Below, piece after piece: positions 2,672 to 43,878 of a stretch of 64,000 bases of DNA (the stretch's first letter is position 1; each line of letters begins with the position of its first letter). The DNA comes from Scedosporium boydii (taxonomy: Eukaryota; Ascomycota; Sordariomycetes; Microascales; Microascaceae). Below the pieces are notes generated by a model, which saw only the letters and a list, made by a program, of their open reading frames with translations, did no database searches and had not been told where the DNA came from. The stretch lies in assembly GCA_002221725.1 (NCBI GenBank), contig NJFT01000050.1:145596-209595 (forward strand), read 5' to 3'. Made by a program: the position numbers and the translations under genes.

Positions 2672-5600
2672 TTATGCCGTCTCGGACCAGGCTCTGGATA
2701 CTCGTCCATCACCTGTATTCCAGATAGGCTGTGGTGGCGCCGGCCTGTTCCGACTTATCCTGTTCCACAGGGAATCCCTATCCGTCGCCCCGGAACCCGC
2801 TGACGAAGGCCTTGATTTGCTTAGCCTGTTGCGGTTCAACCTCTTCTCCGCGACGAGAAGCGCGTGGCGGTCAAAGTCTTGCCACTTGAGTGCCTTCTCG
2901 GCCGCCTCGCGCTCATCGTCCTCACTGCTGCCGTCGTCCGATCCTGATGACGCCTTCTCTTCGATGTAGTGCAGCTCTTTCTGACCACCAAACTTAAACG
3001 ATCCGCTGGGGAAGTTGAGCGATGGGTTCGCCCGCATCTTGGAGAGGTACCATTGCACCCAGTACATTTGCTCGTGCTCGCGGAGGTATCGCTCACCGTG
3101 GAAACACTTCATAACAACACCACGGGAAAGCATACCAAGCTTCCTGCGATATTGCATCTTCTCCCTCATTCGGACGGAGAGCCACTCGACATCCGCAGCA
3201 CTAATCTCTTCGGGCAGCGCGACCGACTCACCATCGTCCGTGTACTTGGTCCACGGCCCCGTCATGGAGAGGAGGCGAAGCTGGGCGCGGGCGAGAGCCG
3301 TGGGGTCATTGGGCGGCACGACCTCACCGTAGCGCGTATTCTCCTCCTCGGGCTCGGTCAGGACGAGCGCCGTAGCGCCGACCTCGGTGGCCACGATAGG
3401 AACACCAGCAAGGGCCGCCTCACCAATGGCGAGAGGAAGACCCTCGGAGATGGAAGAGTTCATGAAAAGCCAGGCATCCTTGAGGACCTCGTGAGGCTTA
3501 CCGAAGCCCTTGAGCACGACGTTTTCGCCCAGCTTGCAGTCGGCAATGAGACGAACCATCTCAGCACAGTACGAAGGCTGACGATCCTTGGAACCGTAGA
3601 TCCAAAGCTGATAATCCTTGAAGCCGTATCGGTTGACGATGACATCGGCAGCCTGGATGGCTGACTTGATGCCCTTGATGAACTGGACGTGCGACAACAT
3701 GACTACGGTGGGCCTCTTGGTGCGGATCTCGTCGACGGGTTGGAAGGAATCCATGTTACTAATACCGTTGACAATGGGCTCAATCTTGCGGCTGAATCGC
3801 TTGCGGCTGCCAATTCGGCCTCGATCGGTACCGATCTCAGTCTCCCACATACTAGGGAAAGATGTATCAGTTAGCTAGATGTTATAATAACTTCGTTAAA
3901 ATTATCTCGAGTGTTCAACTTACGGATTGTAAAGCGACGTGCAGGGCATAATCACGTCGGCATGCATATAGGCGAGCCTTGTAGCGAGACCGATACCAGC
4001 GAGAAGAACAGATTGGACGGGGATTGGCAGGGCGCACTGCGCGGGCGAAATGTTGAGACAGCACTCTCGCCACAGAATGGCGTGGTCCCAAATACAGAAC
4101 GTCGATCCCTTGCGGTACTTGAGGATCATACCGAAGAGCGAACCGATACCGTGATGGGTACTCTGGAAGACGCGGGGACAGTCGTCGGGAATCTTGACGG
4201 CGAAGACAAAGAAGTAAGCCTTGTAGATGCCCAGGGCCTCACGCAGATCGGAAAGACTGGGTCGCTCAATCTCGAAGAAGTCGGAAACATTGTTGACATT
4301 CTCCTCGTCGTAGTGCGTCATCCACGCCTCGACCCAAGCGCGTTCAACCTCGGGCGATTCCCAGGTACGATTGTAGTCCTTGTACTCGAAGTACTTGGAG
4401 ATGGAGAGAATCACGTTCGAGTAGTTGATGAGCTCTTCGCGCGAACAGCGAGTGGATCGGGCGCCCTTGACGAAAGCCTTGAGGAGAGGAACGAAAGTCT
4501 GCTCGATATCGTACTTATCATCGGTGTTCTCAATCTTCTCGTCGACTTGAGACTGGAGATAATTGTCAATGATACCGTGATGAGCAGATCGGCCGTCGAG
4601 ACCCCAGAGAGGGAGCAGCTTAAGAGACTGCACGTTCTTTTCAATCTGGAAGCGAGGGATACCGTATTCGTTGGCGCTCTCCGCCAGCACGTGGTTCCTG
4701 ATCGTCGAGTGACCGTTGACCAAATCGCGACGACAATTGGAAACACCACCAGGAGCCTCGGGCCAGCATCCGATATCGGTGAAGATGACGGAGATACGGT
4801 CCTTGGTATCACGGTAGCAGTCCTCGGGGCGGGTAGTGACCTGGGTGGCGTCGTTGCCGAGACCCATGGCGTACAGATCAGACGTCTTGATTGGCAGGAG
4901 ACACACTTCGGACACGGCAGTCTCGATCTCGATAGCGGCGAAGATCTGGTTTATGTTCCGGTCGAGAGCGGCGCGAGCCTCGGTAAGCCGACCGCGGTCA
5001 CGAAGCTTCCAGTACTCGCGGAGAAGAGGCTCTTGACGAAGAATATCCTCGTCCATCCAGCAGGCAGTGATAGCGTCAAGGTTTCCGGTCTTCAACCAGT
5101 GGCTCCAGAGCTCAGTCCTGACTCGCCAAGTAGGAGCCCGACGATAGACAATGCGACCGTGCCATGAGAACATAGAAGTAAGTTTGAGAGACGAAAGGAA
5201 CGGGGTATTATTGGCGGGACCCGCGCTCTTGGCTGCCTTTCGCATACGGTTGAGCTGGAACATGCCGTGGTAGATGAGGAGATCGTCCGAGTGGAAAACG
5301 TGGTCCTTGGGGCGCTGGAGAAGCTGGGCTTCCTCGTTGCACACCTTCGGGGGTTCGGCGATGGCGGTGGTGCCGGTGTCTCCCTCAATGACAGTGACGC
5401 TGGTGGGATCACGACGATGCTGGTACTCGAGCGTGGTGATGTAGGTCTTCCCATCAACCTTCCGCACAATCCTGCAAAGACGCTCCGAGGGAACCCAATT
5501 GTACTCCTTGGAGCTAGCCCTAGTGGGCTCACCCCAGTAGGCATAGATACCGTCATGGGTACCGGATCCAATAATCTCATAATCCGCGCGCAGAATATCA

Positions 5601-8600
5601 CTGCTGCCTTTGGGAGTAGCCTTGTAGTAGTACCTGAAGGAGAACTCGGTCCTGCCAAGGCGGAGGGTACCGACGCAGATGCGGCCGTGCTTGTCGTAGT
5701 AGCCGGTCATCGTCCTCGACTCCGAAGTCTCCACTTTTTGAGTAGGCCAGCGGTGGTCACTGTTGGGCTCGTGGTAGCGGTAAGTGGAAGTGGCGGTACC
5801 CTTGGCCTCCTTCTTGACACGTCTCTGAAGCCTGAACTTGCTGTCGTAGAGAGCTTGGCAAGTAGGTTCCTTGTTGGCCGGGGGCTCAGTCAGAATTCCA
5901 TCAAAGATGTTAAGAACCATCATTCCCTCGTCGTTCTCAGATGCAAAGCCAGTGATGGCAGATCGGGACAATTCGACGACGATAGAGTTTCCATTAATGG
6001 AACGGGCGGCACCCTTTCGAGCAAGACGCGCAATGTTGGCGATGGCTGGGCGATGGTAGATGAGGATGGCGAAGACCCAAGAGTTTCGAGCAATGTGGCA
6101 GAGGTTCCAGATGGCAAGGACAACCGTGATGATCACGGTGCGCAGGTAGGTGTGCCTAAGCTTGTACCACAGCTCTCTCTCGATGTTAGCGTCGGCGCCA
6201 CAGATGACGGCTATCCATCTCACGGTTCCGAGACAGAACCGCCGAATCCACGACCCGGCACGAGTGACCCAATTCTGATAGGCTCGACCCTCGTTCATTG
6301 GCACACACATCAAGTCGGGCTCGATGTGGTTGGTGATGCGAGGCGCATCGTCGGCGAGGTACGCGAGTGTTCCCAGGGTCAGTTGGCTCTCGTGGGAAAT
6401 GGACAAGCAAAGACGCATGTTGAAGTCGCATGCGCCCATGTCGACCTTCTGGTCCTCCAGCCACTCGGTAAACTCGGGTGCCATCGGAACGGTCTCACCT
6501 AGGATGCGGCAAAGAATGGCCTCGCGAGCGGGCGCGGGGATGACGCCCCACTTGGCGTCGACATCGAGGTCGAGGCACAAGTGTCGCATCAACTCGGCAT
6601 TGGTCTTGAGGTGGAGGTTACGAGAAGAGGCGGGATCAAGCATGGCAATCTCAAAGCTGATTCTTCTAGACATGGTCTCGCCCTCCTCGAGAAGCAGGTG
6701 CTCGATGAGCACGGCGTCCTTGTGTGGTATGTTACGCCAAGAACGGGCCACGTGGTAGAGGATGGCCTCGGTAGCGATCCGACCTTGGACCGAAGCCCAC
6801 GAGGTGAGCCGAATCTCGGATGCGCCAAAGACACCGACGTTGATATCGAGACGGCCCCGGGAATCGAGCCGACTGGCAGAGCAGCAACCACGAAGGCCAG
6901 AATTGGCAAAGGCTTCGCGGTCAACGAATGAGACAACGATGTTGTGGTTGGCCCACATGTCTCGTGCGCGCTGCACAATGTCCATCTGCCAGCTGGGCGT
7001 CGTTTCGCTAGGATAGTCGGAAACCTGCTGTAGAGTTTGAGTAATGACAGTGGTGGCGGCGGAGGACGGAGTAAGCGTGGTTCGACTCGACTCGAGGGAC
7101 TTCCAACTCGCGAGGGCGGTGGGCCCTCCAGCGCGGCGGTTGAGCGAAGTGATCAGCGGCTGCTTCCAGATGCCGCCATCCTGCGTGTTGGACGATAAGG
7201 CTTCGATATTGGGGGACATCTGAGGACGGAATCCGATCCAGACCCAGATGGACGTGACGAGGAAGGCGGTGAAGGCGGCCGTACACATGGCGAGAATGTC
7301 AATGTACAAGAGAGTATAGGTCCAGGGCAGAGCGTGAAGTATACAGCCGACGATGAGACCGAAGAGAGCGGAGAAGTATAGGGTGGTGACGTGGGCTCGC
7401 ACGAAGATGGCGAAGCAACGGTTGAACTGGAAGAGGACGACGCAGGTGTAGCCAAAAACGTAGCACCAATAGACAATAATGGTCTCGTGGTTGTCCACCA
7501 TGAGCCACAGCAGGAGAGTAGTGAAGCCGAGAATAAAGAGGAGCTTTTTGGTCAGTTCGACCAAAGCGGTGCAATAGACCTTGAACCGCCGCTTCTCCCA
7601 CTCCTCTAGGATGTGCTTGGTGTGGTTGAAGTCGACCATCTTCTCCTCAGACAGCTTGAAACGGTCGGGCCAGTATTTTTGCAGAGTGGCATCGAGAGAC
7701 ATGACAGAGAAACAGAAGTACATGATGCAGAGGCAAAGACCATATCGGGATCGGAAGTCGGTATAAAGGGAGATCTGGGGATCACGCCCGGACATGACAA
7801 GCGCGGTCCATCGGTCCATGAGGGCGATCAGGAACAAGGCCACGTTCTGGCCGATATCGTAACGCGAGGCACGGAAGAGAAGCACCGCGTTATGCTCCTT
7901 GAGACCACGGCACAGCTGCTTCTGCTTGGCCTTGGCTTCGCCAAGATTGTTGAACCACTCAGCACTGAACGCAGGTGGGATATCTCCGTTGGGATACTCC
8001 TTGATCATCAACCAGTTGATATAAGGCATGGCCTTGGCAATGCGGGCAGCAACGGGATCCATGCGCCTATCACCAAGTCGGAATTTAGAACGCATGTGCA
8101 TTTCAATGGTCTTTCGAAATTCTGTCTCGGCTGCGTTTTCGGAGTTGCTTCGTCGGGAGATGAGAGAGTCGCTATCGCTACCTTGATCGCCCTTCGAATA
8201 CCTCGCAGAGTACCAGTCTGCAATGTCTCGCTCGGTGAGTTCGGGGATGTTGGACATCCAGCCCGACCACTCCGTACAAAGACTCCTGTACTGGATCAGG
8301 ACGAGGACGAGGAAGGCGTACGAGATGGGAAGGTAGATCTTGAGATCATGGCCGTTCACAAAGGAAGAGATGAGAGGAGAGAGGAAGAGGAATGGAATGG
8401 TGCGCCAGAGAATCAATCGTCCGGAGCGGAGCGGGCTTCCTCGCTGGTGCATCGTCGCCATAATACCAAGGAGAGTAAGATAAGTGGAAACGACGATCAG
8501 GTACGCCGCAAACACCAAGCCAACGTAGATGTCGTAGGATACGGCGAAGGCAATTAGACCTATCGCAGCAACGGTAAACGAGAGCATGAAGCCACCCGAA

Positions 8601-11538
8601 AGCCTCTGGACGTGGAAGAACAAGAGGTTGTCATAGGCGTAGTGCGGCATGTAGTAGTGACCGACGCTGCCGACCCAACCGGTGACACCTGCGGCGAGAA
8701 GAAGCGAAATCAAGACGGCGTAGCCAGAGGCGACAATGTGGGAGGGTTCCATGAAGGCGGTGGTGAACAAACCTCTTCCAAGGAAGCTCAGCAAGATGAC
8801 ATCCAGGATAGCGGGGAAACAGAAGATTGACAGGGCTCCGAATTCCTGGAGACGCTTCTTCCAGTGTCGAAACTTGTTTTCCTCCGACACGGGCGCCGCG
8901 TATGAGCCAGACGGGAGCTTGCCCTTGCTCTCGGTTTCACGCTCAGCCGTAACAGGCCAATACATGGTGATGACACGCTCCTTGGATTCCGTGGGTTTCG
9001 CCGGTGGCACATTGACTTCGAGGTACTTGTGGTACGTCCGATAAACGATCTCACCCAAGTCTCGGGGTAGGATACCGAAGTAGATCTCGCACTGGGATCC
9101 CAGGACCCAGAGCTCGGCGAAGACGGCCGCCTGATCGGTCTGAGAGAGGAAGTAAGGACATCGATCAGTAGCTTCGAGATAAATATCCTCGAGGGCCGCG
9201 CGTCTGAGAACGATGAAGAAGAGGAGCGCGAACATATCGGCGTTAATATCGGCGGGGATCGTGTTCTCGGGCGTACCCTGCAGTTTGTAAACCGATCGAA
9301 GGGCCTCATCGAGAATGGTAAGGACCCTCCTGTCACCGTAAAACAGAGCATCATTCAAAAGGATGTCGACCTGGGAGTAGAGTCGGAGGAGATTGTCGAC
9401 GTTGGGCACCTCTACCGCACCCTTACGAGCGTAGTAGCGCAGACGAGTATCAAAAAGCTCCCTAAGGTCAATCGTGCCAGCGAGTGTGTTGAGCGAATGC
9501 AAGCCCCGCCAATTATCGCTCTCAGCCTCGTCGATGAGGAGGTGTCGGCAAAGTGCAATCATTGGCTTACGGAACTCGTGCTCGAACTGAGTCACGCGGA
9601 GTTGTTCGAGGAAGAAGAGCAATTCGGCATTTGTCGCACGCTCCAACGACACAGCCAGACTCGACGGCATCTCAATAGACGGATCATTCTCACACACCCT
9701 CTCGAGGTCCAACTCGATAATGTACCGCTCGAGGCGGGGCACGCCATGGTGGGCAAGCCAGGTGTGAAGAACTGTGGGAGTATCGCTCGGAGCCTTGAGC
9801 GAGACAAAAATATCGATGCACTCGGCGGAAGAACCCTTACGAACATGTGAGACACCCCAAAAGTAACCGTCTCCTGAGGGGGTACCAAAACCGCTGTCGA
9901 GGCCCTTGAAGATGGCAATCTTACTCTGAGACAAACCCTCAACAAGACCCTCGAGCAGATGTTTACGTCGGCATCCACGATCAATCAAGGCGCCAACCTG
10001 CTGGATAATACGGTGGATCGAGTCACCCTTGACAGGCTGCAAAAGGCGAAGAGTCTTGAGATGGACCTGCTCCTCCACGACGGCGGCGTAGTGCTCGCGA
10101 GAGGGCGACGAGGTGAGCGGGTAGCAGCCCTGGGTAGAGAGTTCCTCCATTCCGCTTGACATGGTCCAGATATTCGTACGCTTTGGCGCCAGGTCGACAT
10201 AGTTGGGCGGGAGAATGCGAGGCGGCTTTTCACAGGCGACTGCAGCCAGAGTCGGGTTGAGAGGTTCGGGTCTCAACAACTCGTCAATTTCCGGGATCAG
10301 CTCCTTCAAGCCCGCGAGAGGAAGTCTCGCAACATGTGCATCGGTCGACCGCACCGAGACGGGTTTGTTATCGTCGAGGCACCACGCCTTGTGCGTTTCG
10401 GTAATCTCCCATCGGCGGAGGTGCTCGAAACCGTTAATGGTGACGGCGGGGACGGGAGGGTTCATGTCGCCGAGCTGCATTGGCTCCCTCGGTCGGTGGG
10501 TGAAAACGGCACCAAAGTGCTTCGCAAGCTTCTCAGCTCGCTTGACAACAGCGGCTGTAGGTCGCTCATCCCAGAGGTCCATGAAGCCGACAAAGAAATC
10601 GGGACGGTACTCCCGCTCCTTGGTACATGTCGAAATGATCTTGCGCAGCGGCACGGCGCTGAAGTAGTCTCGACGGTGACCATTAGGGAGGATCAAGGCG
10701 CTCTCGATGATGAGGCCGAGGACGTGGCTAAGTGGGATGTTCTTGAGCTTGAGAAGCTCGAAGGGGGCGACGAGAACGACGGGGACGTTGAGGCGGAGGA
10801 GATCGCAAACGAGATCGTCGACGGTCTGGGGCGTGACGGAGGAATCGATGCGGAGAGCCAAGCACGCTGCACCGGAGTCGAGGTGAATGGTCGCGAGGTG
10901 CTGGGCAGCGGATGCGACTTGCTTCTCGGCGGGGGCCTTGGCGAGAATGGTATCAAGCCTTACCAAGGGCATGACCGAACGGTTGTCTTGGCTTGTGTGA
11001 TTTCGCCAAGCAGCAGATTCGTCGCGGTTGGCGGCGGTCCATTCGATCAGAGCAAGATCGTGCTCATTGATGGGGGCCCGCACCTCGTCCTCGCCTTGCA
11101 CGTAGCAGAAGGACGTGATCGGTTTCGGTAAGTGGTCTTGGAGGGGTAGGCCCGGCGAGTCCCCGCGACGTTGTACGACATCATCGACGACCCTACCAAA
11201 AAGTCAGCATATAAGTGCCATGTGCCAAGGAGCGACACACTCTTGGCGGAGTAGGACATGGGAAGAAGGGTTAGAAGAAGAATAAAAGGAAACAGAGCTA
11301 CCTACTTTGGTTGGGGCCTCTTTCTGTTGTCGAGATATATAAGGATGCGTTCTATCACCCAGGAGAGGATGGGGAGGGAGAAGGCGGCAGCGGCGACTGC
11401 TATCACGAGGATCTGGTACCAGTGCTTGAATCTGCGATCTGCCTTGACGATACTGTTGCAATAGATCTCGAATCCGGAGGTATCACAGCTCTCGAGGGCC
11501 GGGTCGCCGGACGCTGGCGGTTGAAAGAACGAAGCCAT
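2672..11538 (-). CDS. gtb3: Gtb3-like giant membrane glycosyltransferase (GT4 domain), galactosaminogalactan synthesis
   Basis: Three exons, 11538-11306, 11192-3924 and 3851-2672, encode 2893 residues. The introns are 11305-11193 (GTAGGT..TAG) and 3923-3852 (GTAAGT..TAG), and both junctions preserve frame in phase 2. The N-terminus has one hydrophobic segment (about residues 39-60). Multi-span clusters lie near residues 863-1050 and 1290-1400, and a further hydrophobic stretch lies near 1800. The C-terminal 600 residues form a GT4-type transferase. It starts around CWPEAPGGVS (about 2220) and contains the E-x7-E signature in SEGLPLAIGEAAL. In Aspergillus fumigatus, Gtb3 is the predicted synthase/exporter of galactose-GalNAc polymer. 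The assignment here rests on size, architecture and the company of uge3, sph3, ega3 and agd3. The donor is expected to be UDP-Gal/UDP-GalNAc. Large antisense ORFs across this gene are shadows. Confidence 0.9.
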
Positions 11539-11775
11539 GTCCTCGACACGGGGCAGCTAGCCCTCCCGAGAAGTGCCTCGGTGATGGTGATTAGGGACAA
11601 CGATTAGAAGGTGAAAAATAAAAAAAAAAACGAACGACGTTACAACATGCTTGTGCAGAAACGAAGGAAGAATGGAACGGCAGCACAGCAAAGAGCAAGA
11701 GCGAGTGTCGTGGGGTAATCAGGAAGCGAGCGGTTTGGGTAAATTGAAAAAAAAAGAAAGGAAAAAAAAGCGAGT

Positions 11776-13856: not shown

Positions 13857-13884
13857 CACTTCGTATTGAGGTCAATACGAAGTG
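13857..13884. repeat. 28-base perfect palindrome containing the CTTCGTA motif
   Basis: Two 13-base arms, CACTTCGTATTGA and TCAATACGAAGTG, are exact reverse complements separated by GG. The arms contain the CTTCGTA/TACGAAG core that recurs through this cluster. Confidence 0.7.
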
Positions 13885-14129
13885 CCGAGGTATCTACAGT
13901 CTCCCTGTCCGAAGTATTAATAATAAGGAGTGTCCGAAACTGACGGTTCGTTGTGTGCCGCCACAAACTTGGTGCGCGATGACACTGAGGAAGTCGCAAG
14001 GTGTTCGAGCTGGCGGGACCACTTCGTTGGGGAAGTCGGAGGCGGGGATGTGGAAAGCTCAATCGTTAATACCAAATCCACTAGTGTCCTTGAAAACCCC
14101 ACTACAATTGTACCAAGTCATGTACGAAA

Positions 14130-21010: not shown

Positions 21011-21138
21011 TGCCTGCTCGTAAGCGGACTTGTGGGGTGAGCATAACGGAGAACTCGGGAGGTCCCTACATCTCACGGACTTTTTGCTTTCGTCTCGGGC
21101 TACCTGAAATCCAAGCTAGCGACTAAGTAGCAGCGGAC

Positions 21139-31700: not shown

Positions 31701-31937
31701 AGCTCTCAAAAAGCGTGCTGTCACTTTGCCCCAGCGCGCTAATTCCGACGTTGCATTTCCTACGGTATACGAAGTCGAGCTGGGAAACCCGAACCATTGG
31801 AAATCAAACCAATTCGACCCGATTCGAAGTACCTCTGGTTCCTGGTTCCTTGGTTCCAGCTTTCCCTGCCAAGTCATACTTACACCGCACAACGGTTGGG
31901 AGGGTACTTACCCCCTCTTTCCCCCCGCCCACACACA
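22738..31937. other. 9.2-kb spacer between uge3 and sph3
   Basis: No gene is recognised. The first few hundred bases are T-rich and likely hold the uge3 3' untranslated region. One perfect GTACTTCGTAC copy lies at 26561-26571, and partial copies lie at 23663-23672 and 27046-27055. A G-run lies near 30455-30467 and AT-rich sequence at about 30500-30545. From about 31130 the plus strand becomes CT-rich before sph3. A 287-codon frame at 30763-31626 is judged to be open by chance within this leader. Confidence 0.55.
26554..26571. promoter_or_regulatory. Overlapping GTACTTCGTAC motifs
   Basis: TTACTTCGTAC overlaps a perfect GTACTTCGTAC at 26561-26571. It is the only perfect copy between uge3 and sph3. 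The role is unknown. Confidence 0.3.
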
Positions 31938-33164
31938 ATGTCCTCCAAAAGAAGCAAGAGACTATCAATCCTAGTCTCCAGACTCATGCACCGCCCTCGC
32001 AAACACATCGTCGCCGAGTCAGTATCATCGTCCTCACGACCGGCAACATCAGCCTCATCCCCAACCGATACCACCACCACCCCTGTCAATAACACTACCA
32101 CCACGACACCAAGCACACCACCCGTTATCCCGGCCCTACAGCTAGGAGAGACAACGGCGTCACCAGAAGGATCGAGCCTAAACCTGCCCCTAATCTTATC
32201 CTCCACCCCTACCCCGTCAACTAGCACGCCTAGTTCCAGTGGCACCTCCAAATCGGACCCTGTGCTAGCCATGCCCTCCTCAGGTGCCTCCACGCCTCCC
32301 ACGACCATCCACAGCTCCCATTCCTCCCTCCCCAGCACGCCGCGCCGGCGCGCCTCCCCCGTTCCAGACCAATCGCCCACCAGCCCCTTCATCTGCATCC
32401 CCCTCTACATCTACCCGAACCCTCAGGCCTGGGAGCCCCTGGTCGAGGCGGCACTAGCACACCCGACCTCGTACTTCCACGCCGTGGTGAACCCCAGTAA
32501 CGGGCCGGGGACCACACCGCTGCCGGATGAGAACTACGTCGATGCCCTACGGCGTCTCTCGGCGCTGCCTAATGTGACTATCCTCGGCTACGTCCACGTC
32601 ACGTATGGTAAGCGGCCGGTCACCGATGTCGAGAATGATATCGGTGAGTACGCTGCCTGGAGCACGCGGGACACTTTCAAGGCTAGCGACGACTACTATG
32701 AGGAGTCGGCGCGCATCAGGATAGACGGCATCTTCTTCGACGAGACGCCCTCCGATCCGGAGATGCTGCCCTACATGTCCCGCGTGTCCCGGTGCGCCAA
32801 GCGTCTTTTACGCGGTGCCAAGAGCGGAGCCAACGGTCTCGTCATGCTCAACCCCGGCGTCGTGGTGGCGCCGGCATACTACGACATGGCGGACTACGTC
32901 GTGGCGTTCGAGCAGGCCCACGAGCACTGGAATGCCACCAGGGATGAGTTCCTAGAGGGCCTGGGCGGGCGGTCGAGGAGGCAGAAGACGGTCGTCATGG
33001 TGCATACGTGTCCTGAGGAGCAGACCAAGGTCGAGGGGCTTGTTGGCGAGGTGAGGAAGGCGGGGATTTGTGGGCAGTTCCTTACTGAGCAGGTTAACGG
33101 CGGGTATTCGCAGTGGCCTTGCTGGTGGAGCCAATATGTTGATTCCGTCTTTTTGTATCAGTAG
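31938..33164 (+). CDS. sph3: Spherulin-4-like glycoside hydrolase (GH135)
   Basis: A single exon encodes 408 residues from the first in-frame ATG at 31938, which has A at -3. The frame stays open upstream to a TTG near 31797 but has no earlier ATG. Residues about 20-150 are rich in Ser, Thr and Pro. The hydrolase domain runs from about 151 to the C-terminus. Expected GH135 active-site residues are visible: Asp268 in FFDET, Asn305 in MLNPG and Glu325 in AFEQ. These correspond to the Asp/Asn/Glu trio described for Aspergillus Sph3. The family cleaves GalNAc-rich GAG and is required for GAG production in A. fumigatus. No clear signal peptide or membrane anchor is seen at this start, so a short upstream exon is possible. 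The gene converges with ega3, whose stop lies 0.7 kb away. Confidence 0.88.
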   Translation: MSSKRSKRLSILVSRLMHRPRKHIVAESVSSSSRPATSASSPTDTTTTPVNNTTTTTPSTPPVIPALQLGETTASPEGSSLNLPLILSSTPTPSTSTPSSSGTSKSDPVLAMPSSGASTPPTTIHSSHSSLPSTPRRRASPVPDQSPTSPFICIPLYIYPNPQAWEPLVEAALAHPTSYFHAVVNPSNGPGTTPLPDENYVDALRRLSALPNVTILGYVHVTYGKRPVTDVENDIGEYAAWSTRDTFKASDDYYEESARIRIDGIFFDETPSDPEMLPYMSRVSRCAKRLLRGAKSGANGLVMLNPGVVVAPAYYDMADYVVAFEQAHEHWNATRDEFLEGLGGRSRRQKTVVMVHTCPEEQTKVEGLVGEVRKAGICGQFLTEQVNGGYSQWPCWWSQYVDSVFLYQ

Positions 33165-33885: not shown

Positions 33886-34983
33886 CTACGCATCCTGAAT
33901 CGACGTCGTAAATGTCTTCCCGTCACAATACTCCACCCACCCATCAAGATTCATATTCTTCAACACGGTGCTAAACTCCCCAGCGCCCTGGCTCGCGCAC
34001 CTCCTCTTCGACTCGTCGGCGAGGCTTGTGCCCTTGGGGAGCTCCTCCTTGGGATACTCGATGCGGAAGACGGGCTTCTTGGCCGTGATGAACTTTTCAA
34101 AGGTGCCGCACTCGTCGAACTGGCCGCACTGCTCGTTGACGGAGAAGTCGACGTAGGGGAGGGCCTGTTCGATGATGTCGCCGGCGTTCTTGAGGCCTAC
34201 GGCCATTTTGTACTTGGCGGCCTCGAGGGAGAGGAATTTCATGAAGTCGACAGAGTCTTTGGCGGTGAGGTCGAGGCCGTTGTCGTTTTGCTTCGGTGGG
34301 GGAGTTAGTTCGTTGCCTCAAAGATAGAAAGAAAAAAAAAGAGTGATGCTGGAATTGAGAAGGGTTGGGTTCTTTCCACTTACGTATCCGTCGACATTGT
34401 CGGGGTCGATAGCATCGCAGCCCTTGTCGGCAGCAATCTTGATCCTCGCCGCCATGATAGAACGAACGTTCGCACTCGAAAGCTTCAACCACTTCTCGCC
34501 AGGCCACCCATCAAGCTCCTTGCCAAGATCATCCGGTTGGAACTTATCCTTATCAGACCTCCAGTCCTCGTAGGAACCGGCACTGAAGTAGCAAATAACC
34601 TTCTTCCCCTTCTTCTGCAGCTCGGAAAAGTTCTCGGCATCGTTGTTGAACAAATCCAAATCGTACACGGCCACGTCGGGCGTCAGCTCCTTCGTCAGGT
34701 CGATAGGGTGGAGGAGGATGATCTGCCACGAGTCGCCCACGGCGGGCGTCCACTTCAACGTGCGGTTGACTCCCGTGTCGGGCGGGCCGAGGTCCTCGTT
34801 GCCGCTGTCGTCGCCATCGTCGCCTTTACGGAGGCCTAGGCCGAGACCGAGACCGAGGGCTAGACCGATCACGACGATCACTCCGGCGATTATGAAGGCG
34901 AGGCGGCGCCAGCGGGTGGGGTTGGCGACGCGGAGTTGGTCGCCCTTGCCTACGGAGTCGGAGTTGTAGTTTAGTTGAGACAT
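33886..34983 (-). CDS. ega3: Endo-alpha-1,4-galactosaminidase (GH114), membrane anchored
   Basis: Two exons, 34983-34384 and 34290-33886, are separated by a 93-base intron (GTAAGT..AAG) at phase 0 and encode 334 residues. The start at 34983 is the first true ATG of the frame and gives a short basic cytosolic tail (RWRR). It is followed by one hydrophobic Gly/Leu-rich segment (about residues 28-52), typical of a type II anchor. The GH114 domain follows, with KWTP, ICYFSAGSYEDWR and IDPDNVDGY. Asp195 (in DPDN) and Glu253 (in VNEQC) are spaced like the catalytic pair reported for A. fumigatus Ega3. The enzyme cuts deacetylated GalN-GalN linkages in GAG. It is convergent with sph3 and divergent from agd3. 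Confidence 0.92.
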
Positions 34984-36515
34984 GGTCGGCGATTTATGTG
35001 TAGTGTGTAGCTGTCTCGTTCGAAAAAGAGAGGGTGGTTCGGGGTGGTGTCGGCGGGTGGGAGAGGCCGACCTCGCGCGAAACAATTAAGCTTCACTGAG
35101 AGGGCGTCGTGGGATCGGTTTAATTTTTCGGAGGCGGTCGATCAATGACGTGGGAATTGGGTGCGTGCCCTTTTTTTTGCTTGTCGGAGATCCCCTGGTA
35201 GGGAGTGTTCCTTGTTCCCAGTCGAATTGGGGAGGTCTTGGCTGACAAGGCTCGAGTTGATCGTCGGAGAGCTGAGAGAAAGGTAAAAAGAGAAAGAACA
35301 AAAGAGGGATGCGAACGAGGGTCCGAAATGGATATATTTATTCCCTCTAGAAAAATGGAGTCGTCGGCCAAAAACAGAATATCAAACGAACGTCTGCAAA
35401 ACCACCAACAATTAAAAAAAGAAAAGATCGTCAGAATACAGTCAAAGAGGGCCAGGAACTTTTTGCTCTTTTACTCCACAGACGCGTGGCAGTGGTGGTT
35501 GCTCTTGAGCCACGATGCAGGACAAGGGAGAGAAAAAAAGGACCAAAGAACAGAAAGGCCGAGTCGGAATGCGGAGAATTGGTGGGCTTGGAAAAGGGCC
35601 GCTGAGAGGGCTGTTAGATTGAGGCTGTCGTCAGCGCGGGCTTGGGAAACGTTGGACCACCCCGGGTGAGGCGGAGCTTTCTGCGTGCGTGCAATGAACA
35701 TGAACTGCAATTGTCTGGGCGCTGGAAAGGCCGGGATGGCGCCAAGAAACGGATCTGATGAGAACGGGTTGGTTGGTCGCTGTTGGACAGGACTGAGAGG
35801 TTTTAGGCGCTGCTTTAGAGGGAGGCAACCACTGATTCAGGTGTGGGAAATGGGGTTCTGTGGACTGCTGGTCGAATCGTCAAGGCACCTGACAGGACCT
35901 GTGCTCGATTGGCTGCGCCGTTTCTGGTAAGTTTACTACCAGCCCTACAAGTCCATGTCTACGAGGGATTTGGCTCGACTTGGAGGTACCAAGTTGGAAC
36001 TCAAGAGGGCAGCAAAAAAGGTGATGTGGTATTCTAGGCGGCAGTTCAGGGATGTTGGACGGCCCTACGCCCTCGCAGAGTAGGATCGTCGTATTAGCTC
36101 GAATCGGGCGGGAAAGGCCTGTTGTTCTTCTTGCATTGAGTGAGGTGGAGACGGAATTGCGACTTTAATGCTAGTGTAGGTCGATAAAATGATAAAATGG
36201 ACATTGCATGGATGTTATGAGGAGTGTAAAGTTTGCTGATGTCTTTTCAATTCTTCGATGGGTCTAGCCTGGCCTAGATCAACCGAACCCCTTTACTGCC
36301 TCTGTCCACAGTCGGTTGTGACGAGGATGAGTGGATCTGCTGGTGCTATTTGCCCGCGGCCGTGTTAAGACATTGATCAATTGAAGATTATATCTCAATT
36401 GATCCGGGTGGAATGAGATTGAGACTACGAAATATTGTAGCCACAGCGGGGTTTATTCCCACCAGTCGGCTCCAGAGAAATTGTCAGAAAACCCAGGTCT
36501 TTTTACTGGTGGCAT

Positions 36516-36530
36516 GACAGAGAGACAGAC

Positions 36531-36562
<32 letters not shown>
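36516..36562. repeat. (GACA)n microsatellite
   Basis: GACA/GAGA units run for about 47 bases, ending in six clean GACA repeats. Confidence 0.9.
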
Positions 36563-38022
36563 GACCTGGCCAGGAGCGTTCATGCCCTCTTGTTGAACTT
36601 GGATGGCTTCGGATGAGAAGAGGTGGAAACCGAATGTTGCGGTGATGAATACGAAAATACAAGTGATATTGCGCACGTACTTCGCACGAGAGAATGAGAA
36701 AGTCGCCAGATTTGAAGAGCCTGGTTAATGTCGCGGTGTTGGGCTGCTCCAGTCAAGCGAAGTCGTACAGGCAGATGCGACCCCGGATTCGGGAACCGTA
36801 ACGCAGAATACGGAGCTGCGTTGTTCCCGACAACTGAAGAGTACCTTCATTGATCGAAGGAGTACATCGTGTACTTTAAGTACTTAGTGCTGACAAGGAC
36901 AAGGACAGGGCCTAATTTGAAGTTTAAACGTGGGTAGGACAGCGCATTCCGTATTCCCTTTGCTCCCTCCCCACTGTCTCAAGTACACTACACTAGGCGT
37001 GTCCGCGCTGCCCCTCTCTGTTGCTTTGTCTCTCGTATTCAGTGGAGCCCGAGCTGGAGTGGGACCCATCGAAGAAACAATAGAAAATGCAACGGAGAAA
37101 AAAAATGGGACGAAGTTCCCTCCTTGTACATCCATCCACACAGTCGCCAACAGCCGAACAAGGATCAAGGGTAAAGGACCCTAGCACGCACGTTCTTGGC
37201 CCTGTAGGCCCGCGCATACGCCGACAGATACGGCGGCCCTGTGAATGGAACATGACGTGCGCGGGCACAGTCTCTCGCACACAATAACACCAGTCGAATT
37301 GGGCCAGCAGCGCGAAATGTCGTTTCTCAGGCAGGAAAGGCCCCCCTGGTCCATTTCTCCTCCATTTCTCCCCCAATGCGACTAGTCCCCTTTCAGGGGG
37401 CGTAAGCACAGCGAACCATTTCGATGGGTCCCTAACCTTGCCTGAGCCAATGGTGTTTTTGGGCATACGCTGCCGAAATTGGCATGAGTATTGACGCCAT
37501 GGCATGGTCGATGCGTTGTTCCAGCATTCAGCATTACGAGGCACTGCAACTCTGCGCTCACAACGAGAGATATTCGCACGCCAATGGTCAGTGCTGGATG
37601 CTCCATGAGGTCTTCCGGAAAGGCGGAAGGTGAAAAATATCCAATATTTCATGTCGTGTACGCCGTATGGCGAAATTCTTCGCGAGGGGAACGGTGATGG
37701 GGTCAGCGTCAGTGCAGGATGCAGTCAATCATTCAATGCTGACATTGCATGTTATATTCGACTAGCATCATCACCGTGAAGATGGAGGATGTCATGATCT
37801 TCATTTCGATTACTTGGAATGGCGCTTTTCTCAAGATGTGACCTCTTTAACGTCGTCGGGGCGCATCGCGTAGTTTGCCAACACCCGAGACATTCGGGCG
37901 GTTAACAGAGAACGGTGACACTGATCGGCGAATTTCTTTTTTGACCTGAGGCTGTCTGTGTGTGTTCTTCATGTCGTGGGCGCCGAGACACACATCCACA
38001 CTCACTCACATAAACTTACAAT

Positions 38023-38042
38023 CACACACACACACACACACT
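38023..38042. repeat. (CA)n microsatellite
   Basis: Ten uninterrupted CA units. Confidence 0.85.
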
Positions 38043-38535
38043 CAAGACGGAACCCGGCATTGGAGAATTTGGCAGCTCAGTACCTCCTAGTGAGATTCGA
38101 TTTCAGGTGATGGTACCACCCGCCGTACGATTGAGTTTGGAGCACTACCAAGCTGCTCCTACCCTTGGAAATTGGGCGAATCATATGTCCCGAACGAGCA
38201 TAGCTTCAGGCCCCACACTTTTTGGGCTGTGCGGAAAGAAGAAGGAGTGGAAATACTTTGGCAGCACCAGCGGCGGCATAGCTCTTGCAATACTGTCCAG
38301 AAGTACACGTGGGGTGCAACGGGGTATTGTGGTGATTTCTACAAGGAGTGTACACAAGTACAAACTTTGTAAGCAAGAAAAAGGGTTGACAGCAGCACAG
38401 GAGAAGAGAAGAAACCAGGTCGTGGCTGCCCACAAAATTAAGATAGCATTGGTTGGCGCTAATGCGTCGTGCCTGAACCTGGCGCTGGAGTTCAACACCC
38501 TCTCCGATCGCCCCTTCCACCCCTTTTTGGGCGAG

Positions 38536-38546
38536 GTACGAAGTAC
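38536..38546. promoter_or_regulatory. GTACGAAGTAC motif
   Basis: A perfect copy 2.7 kb upstream of agd3. The regulatory role is inferred only from recurrence. Confidence 0.3.
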
Positions 38547-39483
38547 ATTTATTGACATTTGTCAATGCTTTCGATTGTCACAAAGTATACTTACTGGCTT
38601 CACAGCGTTCACTTTCGATTCTAGGCACTGAAGACGGACCCATTCCAGTGGACCTGGCGCTAGAGGTGCCCACTAAGTCAGTGAAGCTGAGCCTAGAAAT
38701 GCTCCGACGATGCCGTGGAGAGGCCTGACGCCACGGTCGTACCGACTTCATGTCGGAATTTCTCATCCACTTTTCAAGGCCTTCTCCTCTCGATCCCGTA
38801 GGACAAACTGCGGCGATCTCCCCGGCTGGTCAGTGTGTTTCTGTCCGCTTCGGCTAAGGAGCCGACTCGCTTCTGGACAGTGCTTGAATAAGGAGTCAAT
38901 GGAGATCCCCAAGGGGTGACCAAAGCGACGGCCTCTGGCGGGAACGGAACGAGGCAACAAAGCGCCACTTCATTTCCCTTGCTTCTCGTCGGATGGAGTG
39001 CCGAAAGTTGCATACAAAACGGAAGATATCTGCGCTGTATTACCTCAGTCTATTCCGTACAAAGTATGTGATACTTCGGACGAGCCTGCTCAGTAATATT
39101 ATGTACTCCTGGGAACAGAACGGGAAAAAGGAGTGGACCTACACTTTGACGGCGCGGAATCCAGGCCAGGGACCAAGGAGAGAGATCCAGGAACCGACCA
39201 GCCCATCACATTATCGTCATTACGAATAATACGTCTCCATAAGCTCTAGCGTGACGCCCGCTTCCTACGAAATAGGATTGCTTGGGAGGATCAGGATGAC
39301 ATGACATCCTTTTCCTGCATTCCCATAATATTTACCGTTTTCTTAATTTACATCCGCTCGGGCGGTGCCCCCCTTAGCCCTATCGTGATTGCACCTCGCC
39401 CGTGGTTGAGAAGGAGGAGCAGGCAAGTGCTTCGTCCATGCAAAACCAGCCGCACGGGGATCCTTAATATCAGAGAGCGTCGT

Positions 39484-39494
39484 GTACTTCGTAC
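39484..39494. promoter_or_regulatory. GTACTTCGTAC motif
   Basis: A perfect copy 1.8 kb upstream of agd3. Confidence 0.3.
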
Positions 39495-40474
39495 TTCTCG
39501 CGGGTACAGGGTACAGGGTACCGAAGGTAGGGCTCGCACACTAACACGTTTCCACTGCGGATCCGGCAGAAATTGGTTAAACGCGCCATGAACCCGAGAC
39601 TTGGCCGGGAGCCTCCTTTCATCAGCCCAGCTCAGCTTGAATTCTCGAGCGTAGAGCGGAACCAGGAGTCCTAAGGAGACGCAAGTACCCATATTATTAT
39701 GCCCCAAATAGCAATAACCGAAACCCGCTTTAACTCGAGATTTCCGTACCCGGTCTTCACGCTTTCCTCCCTACCCAAATCCCTGGAAATACGGCATCCA
39801 TATTTGGGCCCCCGAGCAATCATAGGCGAAAAACCATCCAGCCCATCGGAGGATACTTTGCGCCTCCAACTTCCCACCTTAATCCCGTCGCTGCCCACCC
39901 ACACACCTCATCCATCAATCATGCATGTCTCTGCTGGCAGCAACCACTTTTTCTTCGTATTATGTGACTGGAGCCAAGCCACGTCGCGGGGAGAGAGAAC
40001 ACACCCACATCAGAGGACCGGGTGTCTGCGTCTCCGCCCGGTTCTTTAATCGCCTGAGTACGAAGCACGAAGCATTGCATTGCTTGTCATAGTTTAGAAA
40101 TTGAATCCGAGACTCTCGTCTGAGACCGTCGAAAATAGCACTATTTTTTTTTCTCCGATGAAGATGACGGAAGATTGCCGAAGGACCTGAGTCGGAGACT
40201 GGGTCTCACCAAGTCGTGTCTTCTACGTTTAGAGTTTGAGTCCGTCAGGTACAGGGCACGCGTCCCAGGCGTTCGCTTGACGACAGCGCAAACATCAATG
40301 ATCTGTCAAAGATTCTCGCCAATCACCCAATGCGTATTTCCCCTGAGCGGCGCTGACCTTAGTCCGACCGCCACCGAATTAGAAACCGCCCTATGGACAG
40401 GGAAGAGAAAGAGAGGTTCCCGGAAGCCAAATGTTGTTTTTCAATCATTGATTCGTATTCCCGTTCCAGCCGTC

Positions 40475-40485
40475 GTACTTCGTAC
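40475..40485. promoter_or_regulatory. GTACTTCGTAC motif
   Basis: A perfect copy 0.8 kb upstream of agd3. Confidence 0.35.
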
Positions 40486-41281
40486 ACCATCGACATCGAC
40501 CAAGCAGGTACCGGGAAAAATCAATAGTCCAAGGTTACTGCATTGGTCCATCAAATTTTGGGCGAATCCACAAAACAAGCCCCCCTCGTCTCCTTGTCGC
40601 CTGTCTCCGGGATCTATCTGCTCCTATTTTGCATCGAGGTACCTCGTACCGTCACTCTCCGTCTCTCTCTTGGCCCCCAGCAGCCTTGTTCCCCCTTCCC
40701 CACACCCACCCAATTTTTCACGCTTTTTCCTGAGCGAAGAGAACCAGGGAAAAGAAAAGCAGCCCAGCCGTGACAGAACGGCGTGGAAATAGCGGCACCC
40801 CTGTACGGCTTAGTGTAATCTCCACCGGCGTTTGGCATCCTGTACGCTGCGCTACGAAGGTACACGACCATGTCCTGTCCTGTCCTCGTTTACCACCAAG
40901 CCCAGCCCACAGCCCATCGTGCCTTATGCGCCCATTATACACTACTGCTTCTTGGATCCTTGGTCTGACCCCCCTTTGGGTTGCCCGGCTGTCCCCCTGC
41001 TCGCGAAGATGTGGTAGTTTCTTAAAAGAGCTCGGTTCCAGGGCTGAAAGACTTCCTTCTTCTTTCCTTCTTTACCTTAGGTCCTCCCACCTCTTTTTAA
41101 TTCGTGTAGGCTTTGTTATTCCCAAGGGTTTCTTTCAACCTCGAGGATCATTCCTACATTTGTCACTCGTTTAGACACTCGACCTTCGTTTTGGTAATTG
41201 TTTTTTTGCAGCATCGTTATTTTAGTAATTCGAATCACGAAAATCTCCCGAAAAGAAAAAAAGAGACACAACACCCAAACG

Positions 41282-43878
41282 ATGCGTTTCTTCAACAGCG
41301 CCGTCGGCGCGCTTCTCGCCCTCCAGGCGGGAGTAGCCTACGCCTGCACCAAGACCATCACCGGTACCATCCTCATCATCGGTCGTGACGACTACGATGT
41401 CTCCAACGGTGCCGCTGGCTTCAAGGCCTATGGTATCAAGACCGAGGGCCTCATTGTCCCCCAGGCCGGCGCCACACTCCCCGCCCTCAACTCGACCATC
41501 GAGCGAGGTAACTATGGCGGCATCGTCGTCATGGCCGAGGTTTCCTACGATTACGGTGACGCTTGGCGTAGCGCCCTTACCACCGAGCAGTGGAATGCCA
41601 TTTACCAATACCAGATCGACTTTGGCGTGAGGCTGGTCCGCCTCGATTCTTATCCCACGCCCGAGTTCGGTAAGTTGACGATGGACGCGGTGTATTGAAA
41701 GGGCATGGAAAAACTAATTTTGGGAATCAGGTACCACCGCCCTCGGTGGATGCTGTGACACTGGTGTTGACCAGAAGGTTGGCTTCAGCGATGTGTCTCA
41801 GTTCCCTACTGCCAACCTCAAGACGTGAGTGCCAGAAATATCGCTAAGGATGAGATGAGGGGACAATTAACTGACTGTGTTATCAATCAATAGTGGCGGT
41901 TGGGTCTCTACCACTGGCCTCTGGCACAGCCCTGCCTCCATCTCCGATCCCAGCATCGCCACCGCTTTCGCCGAGTTCAGCCCCGCCGGTACCTTCACCT
42001 CCAACACTGTTGCTGCCGTCATCAACAAGTACACCACCGGACGCCAGCAGATGGTCTTCTTCACCAGCTGGGCCAGCGACTGGTCTCTCGCCTCCAACTA
42101 TCTCCAGCACTCTTTCATCCACTGGGTCACCCGCGGTCTTTGTAAGTGCTGTCCCAAGCTTGACGAGCTCCCTGTTTAGGCAGGTTCTATTTTTACCGCG
42201 GCCTCTGTTTTTATCCTTTTGCCGCCGCAGGAACAGCAAAGCCTCTATCTTACGTGCAGCATTTTAATTAATCGGCTGCATCATGATGATATCCTATTTC
42301 GCTAACACATTGAAAAACGTGCAGTCTCTGGCAAGCGCAAGACCTACCTCAACACCCAGGTCGATGACGTTCACTTGTCCACTGGCATCTACTATCCCAC
42401 GACGGTTGGTGAATTCCGCCTCCGACCCGCGGATCTGACTGCGCTCAAGACCTGGCAGGAGGGCCTCCAGACCCGTCTCCCCCAGGGCTCGCACTTCTTC
42501 ATTGAGCTCGCCCACAACGGTAACGGTGCCATCATCGAGGCCGTGGGCAAGTCCGGCAACACTTGCAACCCCAACGAGCCCGTCGACTACGATGAGATTC
42601 CCGATGTCGCCTATGACTGGATCAAGCCCCTCGGCTCCGGCACCGACATGTGGCCTCCTTCGTTCACCAACACTTATCCCTGGAACGCTCAGTGCCCCAA
42701 GTCCGATGACCTTCTCGCCTGGTTCCAGACTGCCTCCAACCGTGACGCTTTCGCCCATCTTTCCCACACCTTCACCCACGAGGAGATGAACAACGCCACT
42801 TTCAACGATGCCAACCGCGAGATGATTTACAACATCCAGTGGCTCAAGGACCAGGGATTCTGGACCGCCGAGAAGTTCTCCCCCAATGGTCTCGTTCCTC
42901 CCGCCATCACTGGTCTCAACAATGGTGACGCCATCCGCGCCTGGATGGAGAACGGCATCAAGTATGTTGTTGGTGACAACACTCGCCCTCCCCTGAGGAA
43001 CTCCCAGAGCCAGTACTGGCCTCTCATCACCAACTCTGCCGTTAACGGTCATGACGGTCTCGTTGTCGTCCCTCGCTGGGGTAAGTTTGGAAATCTCGAA
43101 AGCATTTTTTGAGCAATATTTTCCCGAATTTGCGACTAACTTGGGTTTTTAGCCACCACCATCTACTACAACTGCGACACCCCCGAGTGCACTTGGCAGG
43201 AGTGGCACGATACCTCGGCCGGCACTGGCGACTTCAACACTCTTCTTGATGATGCCAGGCTCACCAACACCCGTTACCTGTTGGCTCTCCACCCCGATCC
43301 CTACATGTTCCACCAGGCTAACCTCCGCAACATTGTACGTTATTTCTTTCCTCTTCAATCGACATTCCCTTGTACCCTCTATCTCTGGAAGAATGCGTAA
43401 GCTAATGGCTCATATTTAGGACCGCCCCGTCTTCACCATCGGACCCGTCAGCGGGAAGCTCTCTCTTATCCAGATTTGGATCGAGGCCATCACCCAGGAG
43501 CTCACCAGCCTCACCAACTGGCCCATCCAGTCTCTCAAGCACGATGACATTGCTCAGCTCTTCCTTGACCGCATGACTCTTGAGTAAGCTGCCATTCCTC
43601 TGACTCTCTCTCATTCTTTTTGCTAACTATTAGCTAGTCAATGTGAGCCCAACGTCGAGTACATCTACTCGCACGACACCAAGAAGATCACCGGTGCCAA
43701 CCTCATCGCCTCGGGTAACTCCTGCGGCGTCAACGTCCCTCTCACCGTTCCCGGTGACGTCGTCACGTCCACTGGCGGTGTCTTCAAGGATCAGGTCGGC
43801 TCCGAGCCCATCATTGCCTGGGCTCCTCTCAGCGGCAGCCCTGTCACCTTCACCCTCAACACCCCCGTCGATGCCTAA
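41282..43878 (+). CDS. agd3: Secreted GAG N-acetylgalactosamine deacetylase (CE18, Agd3-like)
   Basis: Seven exons encode 690 residues: 41282-41669, 41731-41824, 41894-42141, 42325-43080, 43153-43334, 43420-43583 and 43638-43878. All introns are GT..AG and every junction preserves frame. Intron 3 (183 bases) is much longer than the others (54-85). A signal peptide is evident (about residues 1-21, ending VAYA before the first Cys). The catalytic deacetylase domain shows VDDVH (Asp257/Asp258) and HTFTH (His391, His395), fitting the Asp-His-His metal site of this polysaccharide deacetylase superfamily. The enzyme removes acetyl groups from GalNAc in secreted GAG, making it cationic and adhesive. 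The last intron has two possible AG acceptors; the upstream one would introduce an immediate stop, so the downstream one is used here. It is the last cluster gene on this side. Confidence 0.93.

What the first reader, a model, noticed from the sequence alone, without database searches (positions are those of the whole stretch)
2672..43878. Complete five-gene galactosaminogalactan cluster outside the classic Aspergillus layout
All five known GAG genes (gtb3, uge3, sph3, ega3, agd3) are present and intact in 41 kb. As I recall it, the A. fumigatus order places gtb3 next to agd3 with uge3 at the far end. Here uge3 is next to gtb3 and agd3 is at the far end. Gene content is seen in the sequence; the functions come from A. 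fumigatus work; GAG production by this organism is inference.
Basis: partly seen in the sequence, partly recalled or inferred. Interest (0 to 1): 0.75.

Follow-up and report, generated by a model that had tools for sequence, protein, structure and literature searches.

The report
Fungal GAG sugar cluster, Neurospora-type order
This is an intact five-gene fungal cluster for making a sticky surface sugar called galactosaminogalactan, in the gene order already known from Neurospora; its one odd feature is that an enzyme thought to work outside the cell carries no visible export signal or membrane anchor.

Summary
gtb3, uge3, sph3, ega3 and agd3 lie between 2672 and 43878, each with a complete frame and matches to the right families and solved structures. 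Sequence places the fungus in Microascaceae. Elsewhere in its 42.9-Mb genome, contig C27 holds an sph3 and an agd3 paralogue; no match to the other three was found in the 50 kb around them. Two more results. First, Sph3 here has no hydrophobic signal or anchor; 15 of 18 named Sordariomycete models also lack one, while 86 of 104 Eurotiomycete models carry one, though N-termini of predicted genes are unreliable. Second, a one-base variant of the core of the published SomA site, TACTTCGTA, occurs 15 times in the window, all in the cluster's long intergenic regions, but its 11-base form is genome-wide (1489 copies). Verdict: a new member of a known kind, with one testable twist.

The parts
2672..11538 (-). 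gtb3: giant membrane glycosyltransferase (GAG synthase), exons 11306-11538, 3924-11192, 2672-3851; DUF3492 and GT4 domains at the C-terminal end
   Evidence: Pfam DUF3492 5.1e-7, Glyco_trans_1_4 4.7e-20; 2893 aa, GT-AG introns; best named relative Cephalotrichum gorgonifer DNG_04082, 71%; one match in the own genome
11539..21393 (.). 9.9-kb intergenic region between divergent gtb3 and uge3, 8 TACTTCGTA sites; no gene recognised
21394..22737 (+). uge3: UDP-glucose 4-epimerase, single exon, 447 aa
   Evidence: Pfam Epimerase 1.8e-40; PDB UDP-glucose 4-epimerases, best 6.4e-85; the only other matched place in the genome is 38-41% identical, on C24
22738..31937 (.). 9.2-kb intergenic region between uge3 and sph3, 4 TACTTCGTA sites; no gene recognised (N. 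crassa has the small gene NCU05134 here; its sequence was not searched for)
31938..33164 (+). sph3: GH135 spherulin-4-type GAG hydrolase, 408 aa, basic N-terminal segment plus Ser/Thr/Pro-rich linker, no hydrophobic signal or anchor seen
   Evidence: Pfam Spherulin4 6.7e-68; PDB 5d6t 2.1e-37 and 5c5g 3.1e-37; hydropathy; upstream scan
33886..34983 (-). ega3: GH114 endo-alpha-1,4-galactosaminidase, exons 34384-34983 and 33886-34290, N-terminal membrane anchor
   Evidence: Pfam GH114 4.1e-47; PDB 6ojb/6oj1 2e-94 and 4e-94; hydrophobic segment near residues 28-47, mean hydropathy 2.76
34984..41281 (.). 6.3-kb intergenic region upstream of both ega3 and agd3, 3 TACTTCGTA sites at 0.8, 1.8 and 2.7 kb upstream of agd3; no gene recognised
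41282..43878 (+). agd3: CE18 GAG deacetylase with CBM87, 7 exons, 690 aa; signal-peptide-like start by eye (19-residue hydropathy 1.38, under my 1.6 anchor threshold)
   Evidence: Pfam CBM87_Agd3 3.1e-40 and Agd3_CE 5.5e-105; PDB 6nwz 2e-216 over residues 25-688

Best explanation
A complete galactosaminogalactan (GAG) cluster of a Microascaceae fungus in the Neurospora-type order. Uge3 makes UDP-galactose and UDP-GalNAc; the membrane synthase Gtb3 joins and exports them; secreted Agd3 removes acetyl groups so that the polymer becomes positively charged and sticks to hyphae and surfaces; membrane-anchored Ega3 cuts deacetylated stretches; Sph3 (GH135) cuts acetylated GAG and in A. fumigatus and Metarhizium is needed for GAG to appear. 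Gene content, domains and sequence targeting features are shown here. The enzymatic steps follow from A. fumigatus, Metarhizium, Verticillium and Neurospora work. Production of GAG by this fungus is inferred.
For: Families and structures; intact frames and GT-AG introns; Agd3 catalytic motifs DD, HTFTH, PRW and MFH aligned with 6nwz (residues named in PMC7229062); Sph3 Asp, Asn and Glu columns invariant in 15 of 15 aligned proteins; Ega3 anchor present; same order in N. crassa, where the synthase mutant has much less GalN/GalNAc polymer in the medium; orthologous clusters make GAG in M. robertsii and V. dahliae; Gtb3 has one match in the genome.
Against: No expression or chemical data. Sph3 lacks the anchor that the Aspergillus model assumes. 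The intergenic regions are long (9.9, 9.2 and 6.3 kb). In N. crassa the GH135 deletion mutant still adhered to glass, unlike the A. fumigatus and M. robertsii mutants that lose GAG, so the role of Sph3 may differ between lineages.
Confidence: 0.9

Rival explanations
1. In this fungus, and in Sordariomycetes generally, Sph3 is not exported by the classical route: it acts on the inner face of the membrane or in the cytosol, clearing or trimming GAG chains around the synthase, while Ega3 and Agd3 work outside.
For: The sph3 frame has a stop just before 31743 and its first ATG is at 31938. Hydropathy of the 150 residues before the domain reaches only 0.37 (19 residues) or 1.07 (11 residues), against 2.76 and 3.33 for Ega3 and 1.38 and 1.90 for Agd3. 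Of 34 ATG frames between 29500 and 31938, two exceed 1.6, and they are one frame read from two ATGs in a T-rich tract 1.4-1.5 kb upstream. A basic N-terminal segment is shared by 8 of the 10 relatives that group with the window in the tree. Of 18 named Sordariomycete models, 15 have no hydrophobic N-terminal segment: 11 score 0.44 or less and 4 have under 15 residues before the domain.
Against: N-termini are gene predictions. 18 of 104 Eurotiomycete models also lack the segment, 15 of them starting with MG near the domain, where 85 of 86 anchored models have a Met within 8 residues: probably mis-started, and the same could hold for Sordariomycetes. My 1.6 threshold misses the Agd3 start, so it does not detect every signal peptide. 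The C27 paralogue is ambiguous: its frame reads a fairly hydrophobic stretch (11-residue mean 1.92) upstream of the first Met, without an in-frame ATG. Two of ten relatives lack the basic segment. Non-classical export is not excluded. PMC11356417 describes GH135-1 as a homologue of an anchored protein, which can be read either way.
Confidence: 0.4
2. Sph3 is anchored or secreted as in Aspergillus and the first exon has been missed in the window and in most Sordariomycete annotations.
For: Probably mis-started Eurotiomycete models show that the error happens. A 3' splice site inside 31743-31938 cannot be excluded by sequence alone. The stretch upstream of the C27 paralogue's first Met is hydrophobic.
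Against: No plausible anchor exon in the 2.4 kb upstream; N-terminal Met and basic segment shared by 8 of 10 relatives. Among 18 named Sordariomycete models, 3 have a hydrophobic segment: one at residue 87, one short signal-like start on a distant protein, one belonging to a merged ega3.
Confidence: 0.3
3. The gene order is a lineage-specific rearrangement peculiar to this fungus, as the first reader's contrast with Aspergillus might suggest.
For: The order differs from A. fumigatus: the agd3-ega3-sph3-uge3 block is reversed relative to gtb3.
Against: Same order in N. crassa. Locus tags DNG_04082/DNG_04084 and ACHAQA_007229/ACHAQA_007227 leave one number between gtb3 and sph3, as do VDAG_08041 and VDGD_08039, though these two carry different prefixes; what the gene between is was not checked.
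Confidence: 0.03
4. TACTTCGTA sites are binding sites of a SomA/Flo8-type regulator whose preferred site differs by one base from the Aspergillus site, and the GAG cluster is one of its strong targets.
For: 15 sites in the window, all in cluster intergenic DNA, 0.29 expected from order-3 Markov sequence; SomA site GTACTCCGTAC upstream of agd3 and ega3 in A. fumigatus; genome-wide 1489 for GTACTTCGTAC versus 22 for the reversed control, against 213 versus 31 for the Aspergillus form; density 0.58 per kb in the cluster gaps versus 4 sites in about 34 kb noncoding on C27.
Against: The motif is genome-wide, so it is no proof of control of this cluster. The related word is also overrepresented genome-wide in A. 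fumigatus Af293, where it overlaps predicted motifs of C6 zinc cluster factors (PMC12153272), and TACGGAGTA was recovered in ChIP with another factor in Ustilaginoidea virens (PMC8344781). No binding data. Sites near uge3 and sph3 lie 2-8 kb upstream. The recalled StuA-type pattern is not enriched (33 found, 53 expected). That a SomA orthologue exists here was not tested.
Confidence: 0.3

Closest known systems
Neurospora crassa GAG cluster NCU05132-NCU05137 (PMC11356417)
   Same: Same five enzymes in the same order: synthase, epimerase, GH135, GH114, deacetylase
   Different: N. crassa has a small secreted gene (NCU05134) between epimerase and GH135 and spans 30 kb; no gene was recognised in that place here and the cluster spans 41 kb. 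Orientation in N. crassa was not seen (figures not held).
Aspergillus fumigatus GAG cluster AFUA_3G07860-07910 (PMC4817252)
   Same: Same five gene families; best-characterised functions
   Different: Order there is gtb3, agd3, ega3, sph3, uge3, with agd3 and gtb3 in opposite directions; A. fumigatus Sph3 models (P0111, P0176) carry an N-terminal anchor that is absent here
Metarhizium robertsii and Verticillium dahliae GAG clusters (PMC8224951, PMC13245733)
   Same: Same five genes with shown GAG production; Metarhizium also has a second Agd3
   Different: Gtb3 of M. rileyi, M. album and V. albo-atrum is 45-46% identical to the window's. Here the second Agd3 lies near a second Sph3 (C27); whether that is so in Metarhizium was not seen.

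Membership tests
Pezizomycotina GAG biosynthetic cluster | Synthase, epimerase, deacetylase and hydrolases at one locus | tested here: met
Pezizomycotina GAG biosynthetic cluster | Gtb3 is a giant protein with several membrane spans and GT4 (and usually DUF3492) domains | tested here: met
   Pfam; 2893 aa and many hydrophobic segments; the 15 named homologues are 2760-2951 aa
Pezizomycotina GAG biosynthetic cluster | Agd3: CE18 domain with the four catalytic motifs and CBM87 | tested here: met
   motifs as in PMC7229062
Pezizomycotina GAG biosynthetic cluster | Ega3: GH114 with N-terminal membrane anchor | tested here: met
Pezizomycotina GAG biosynthetic cluster | Sph3: GH135 domain with conserved catalytic Asp and Glu | tested here: met
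   residue numbers D166/N202/E222 are recalled (PMC12054363, prints Asp196/Glu222)
Pezizomycotina GAG biosynthetic cluster | Uge3 epimerises both UDP-glucose and UDP-GlcNAc | not testable with these tools
   epimerase family shown; substrate range needs an assay
Aspergillus-type GAG cluster | Sph3 anchored in the membrane, facing outside | tested here: not met
   no hydrophobic N-terminal segment in the gene model; no transcript data
Aspergillus-type GAG cluster | Order gtb3, agd3, ega3, sph3, uge3 | tested here: not met
   window order gtb3, uge3, sph3, ega3, agd3
Neurospora-type GAG cluster | Order synthase, epimerase, GH135, GH114, deacetylase | tested here: met
   against PMC11356417
Pezizomycotina GAG biosynthetic cluster | Co-regulation and GAG production | not testable with these tools
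   needs RNA and chemistry

The most novel reading that the evidence does not exclude
In Sordariomycetes the GAG hydrolase Sph3 has no membrane anchor and works on the cytosolic side of the synthase. GAG synthesis would then include an internal cutting step, which bears on the open question of why a hydrolase is needed to make the polymer. The one named Trichosporonales protein seen (Cutaneotrichosporon, P0055), from a group thought to have received the cluster from Sordariomycetes, is anchorless too.
Probability: 0.35. Interest if true: 0.6.

Novelty: new member of a known kind. Interest (0 to 1): 0.35.

Why it matters
I saw no report of a GAG cluster in Microascaceae: searches (the last listed 15 of 730 papers), and in two Scedosporium papers the word occurs only in the reference list; three other Scedosporium papers in that listing that hold the word were not opened. 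It extends a known adhesion and biofilm polymer to a family that includes opportunists of human lungs (recalled). A review asks how a membrane hydrolase can contribute to making the polymer it cuts (PMC8647848, passages). An Sph3 without anchor in a whole class of fungi would make the site of that step directly testable in Neurospora.

Tried and rejected
Cluster-specific regulatory element: the motif first looked specific to the cluster (15 of 15 sites of the window in its intergenic DNA), but the own-genome count showed it is genome-wide, so that claim was dropped. Local enrichment remains: 8 copies of the 11-base form where about 1.8 are expected if all genomic sites lie in a noncoding half (an assumption), P about 6e-4. 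StuA-type sites: not enriched (pattern recalled). Hidden genes in the long gaps: 16 of the larger gap ORFs had no Pfam match (not all gap ORFs were sent), and the gene finder gave nothing above a score of 7 inside the three gaps; short or unusual genes could be missed. Two gene-finder introns, in uge3 (22271-22330) and at the end of gtb3 (2694-2804), were rejected: the first removes a segment conserved in GalE, the second is unneeded in an open frame and relatives have the unspliced length. Cytospora P0138 looked like an ega3-sph3 fusion but its GH114 part is cut short, so a merged annotation is likelier. DNA of relatives: scans of genome contigs and viral contigs found none. Single clean inversion from the A. 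fumigatus order: the four-gene order fits, but agd3 would then point the other way.
Full report
What is there. Stop-to-stop frames, Pfam and solved-structure searches identify gtb3, uge3, sph3, ega3 and agd3. A codon-based gene finder written for this window, checked by hand, gives gtb3 - 2672-11538 (introns 11193-11305 and 3852-3923; 2893 aa), uge3 + 21394-22737 (447 aa), sph3 + 31938-33164 (408 aa), ega3 - 33886-34983 (intron 34291-34383; 334 aa) and agd3 + 41282-43878 (six introns; 690 aa). All 9 introns are GT-AG and each protein has one, terminal, stop.

Identity of the proteins. Gtb3: 20 homologues at E <= 1e-3 (only 7984 candidates were scored), 15 of them named, and all 15 names are fungi; the best named is Cephalotrichum gorgonifer at 71%, with Metarhizium rileyi at 46% and Verticillium albo-atrum at 45%. 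V. dahliae VdGtb, shown to be needed for GAG, is 2856 aa. The GT4 end shows EGLPLAIGE (its reading as the GT4 EX7E motif is recalled). Sph3: spherulin-4 structures 5d6t and 5c5g at 2e-37 and 3e-37 (5c5g is A. clavatus Sph3 by PMC12054363); Asp, Asn and Glu columns of the active site invariant in 15 of 15 aligned sequences. Ega3: A. fumigatus Ega3 structures 6ojb and 6oj1 at 2e-94 and 4e-94. Agd3: 6nwz at 2e-216 over residues 25-688, with the catalytic motifs in place (motif residues from PMC7229062 passages). Uge3: UDP-glucose 4-epimerases; whether it also acts on UDP-GlcNAc was not tested.

Organism. The nearest named proteins come from Cephalotrichum and Parascedosporium. The Sph3 tree of 45 rows puts the window in an 11-row set (support 99/98) with Parascedosporium, Cephalotrichum and Microascus (Thermomyces) stellatus; all three are Microascaceae. 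Much of the tree's backbone is weak. The window is G000:C50:145596-209595 in a 42.9-Mb assembly of 442 contigs.

Gene order. The A. fumigatus order follows from locus numbers in PMC4817252 (passages) and from PMC7667024 (passages), which states that agd3 and gtb3 flank one region in opposite orientations. The window has gtb3, uge3, sph3, ega3, agd3. N. crassa has NCU05132 synthase, 05133 epimerase, 05134 small gene, 05135 GH135, 05136 GH114, 05137 deacetylase (PMC11356417, abstract and passages), the same order. PMC8224951 (passages) calls Metarhizium mesosyntenic to A. fumigatus with order and orientation differences. Locus numbers in Cephalotrichum, V. albo-atrum and V. dahliae (two different prefixes in the last) leave exactly one number between gtb3 and sph3; that this gene is uge3 was not checked. 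PMC4817252 reports the cluster at one locus in 28 species, with synteny in the majority; its Figure S5 was not seen.

Sph3 targeting. Sph3 of the window has no hydrophobic N-terminal segment (19-residue mean at most 0.37 before the domain), while Ega3 reaches 2.76 and Agd3 1.38. The frame opens after a stop that ends at 31742 and its first ATG is at 31938. A scan of 37 ATG frames, 34 of them upstream of 31938, found one hydrophobic frame, read from two ATGs (2.88 and 1.71, at 30447 and 30525, in a T-rich tract); frames under 19 residues were not scored. A basic N-terminal segment like the window's is present in 8 of the 10 relatives of its tree set and absent from the Cephalotrichum model and one unnamed model. 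I classified 124 named GH135 proteins: Sordariomycetes 3 of 18 with a segment of mean hydropathy at least 1.6, Eurotiomycetes 86 of 104, Dothideomycetes 2 of 2. Of the 157 rows P0025-P0181, the 33 left out were 28 without a usable organism name, P0036 (archaeal label, taken as contamination), 3 from other groups and P0072 (a window ORF, not a GH135). Class labels were assigned by me from the names; one row labelled Elasticomyces (85% to Penicillium) was counted with Eurotiomycetes. Only 120 of 310 hits were listed, so sampling leans to Eurotiales. The Fisher value of 6e-8 treats related rows as independent and is only descriptive. The three Sordariomycete exceptions are a Parascedosporium model with its segment at residue 87, a distant Gaeumannomyces protein with a short signal-like start and a Cytospora model merged with ega3. 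Against the reading: 18 Eurotiomycete models also lack the segment and 15 of these start with MG near the domain, probably mis-started, so the same error in Sordariomycetes is possible; the 1.6 threshold would also miss a weak signal peptide such as that of Agd3.

Rest of the genome. Gtb3 has one match. Spherulin4 has three: the window, C27:108013-108747 and a weaker one on C213 with two stops inside; the frame upstream of the C213 match carries some 200 residues of other sequence. C27 also carries an Agd3 paralogue at 112972-115529, 47-74% by piece, 4.2 kb from the Sph3 paralogue, and no gtb3, uge3 or ega3 match in the 50 kb examined. The C27 Sph3 copy is ambiguous as to targeting: no in-frame ATG before MVSILLPLYIYP, but a hydrophobic stretch in the frame upstream. 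GH114 occurs also on C196 and C233; an epimerase at 38-41% on C24. M. robertsii likewise has a second Agd3.

Long intergenic regions and a motif. The three long gaps total about 25.4 kb with no recognised gene. The SomA word GTACTCCGTAC with up to two mismatches gave 32 matches where 8.5 are expected. An unbiased word count then found TACTTCGTA 15 times in the gaps and nowhere else in the window; order-3 Markov sequence gave a mean of 0.29 and a maximum of 2 in 100 runs, and no non-simple 9-mer in those runs exceeded 9. It differs by one base from the core of the A. fumigatus SomA site. Genome-wide the 11-base form occurs 1489 times against 22 for the reversed control, and the Aspergillus form 213 against 31. 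It is therefore a general motif of this genome, about nine times denser per kb over the cluster gaps (8 in 26.1 kb) than over the genome as a whole, coding DNA included. In A. fumigatus the related word is also overrepresented genome-wide (PMC12153272, passages). A search for TACTTCGTA in papers gave 127 papers; none of the 15 listed is on fungal promoters by its title, and the rest were not seen.

Verdict. A real, intact GAG cluster in an order already known from Neurospora. The Aspergillus comparison made it look rearranged. The apparently anchorless Sph3 is the part worth following.

Noticed in passing
window 1310-2022 (+) and 52.7-58.2 kb (-): A family of small related coding stretches (52-55% identical over 62-88 aa for the best pairs) lies on both sides of the cluster in opposite orientation, one copy left and four right; six of the stretches had no Pfam match over its cut-off.
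   Followed up: partly
own genome C27:107935-115541 (L003, L023, L024): A satellite locus with an Sph3 paralogue (40%) and an Agd3 paralogue 4.2 kb apart, with no synthase, epimerase or Ega3 match in 50 kb.
   Followed up: partly
whole genome; window 11777-40476: GTACTTCGTAC is a strongly overrepresented genome-wide word (1489 against 22 for the reversed control), a one-base variant of the A. fumigatus SomA site.
   Followed up: partly
protein P0036 (3.3-kb contig): A GH135 protein labelled Candidatus Bathyarchaeota archaeon falls inside the Microascaceae clade, so that archaeal bin probably holds fungal contamination.
   Followed up: no
window 49322-49423 (-): A tRNA gene found by Rfam (46.6 bits, 102 nt, probably with an intron) and not by ARAGORN in bacterial mode.
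   Followed up: no
GH135 models of Eurotiales: 85 of 86 anchored models have a Met within 8 residues before the GH135 core, and 15 unanchored models begin with MG near there; an alternative start giving an unanchored form is possible.
   Followed up: no
window 50026-62307: The right flank holds a GNAT acetyltransferase, an alpha/beta hydrolase and an FMO-like monooxygenase.
   Followed up: no
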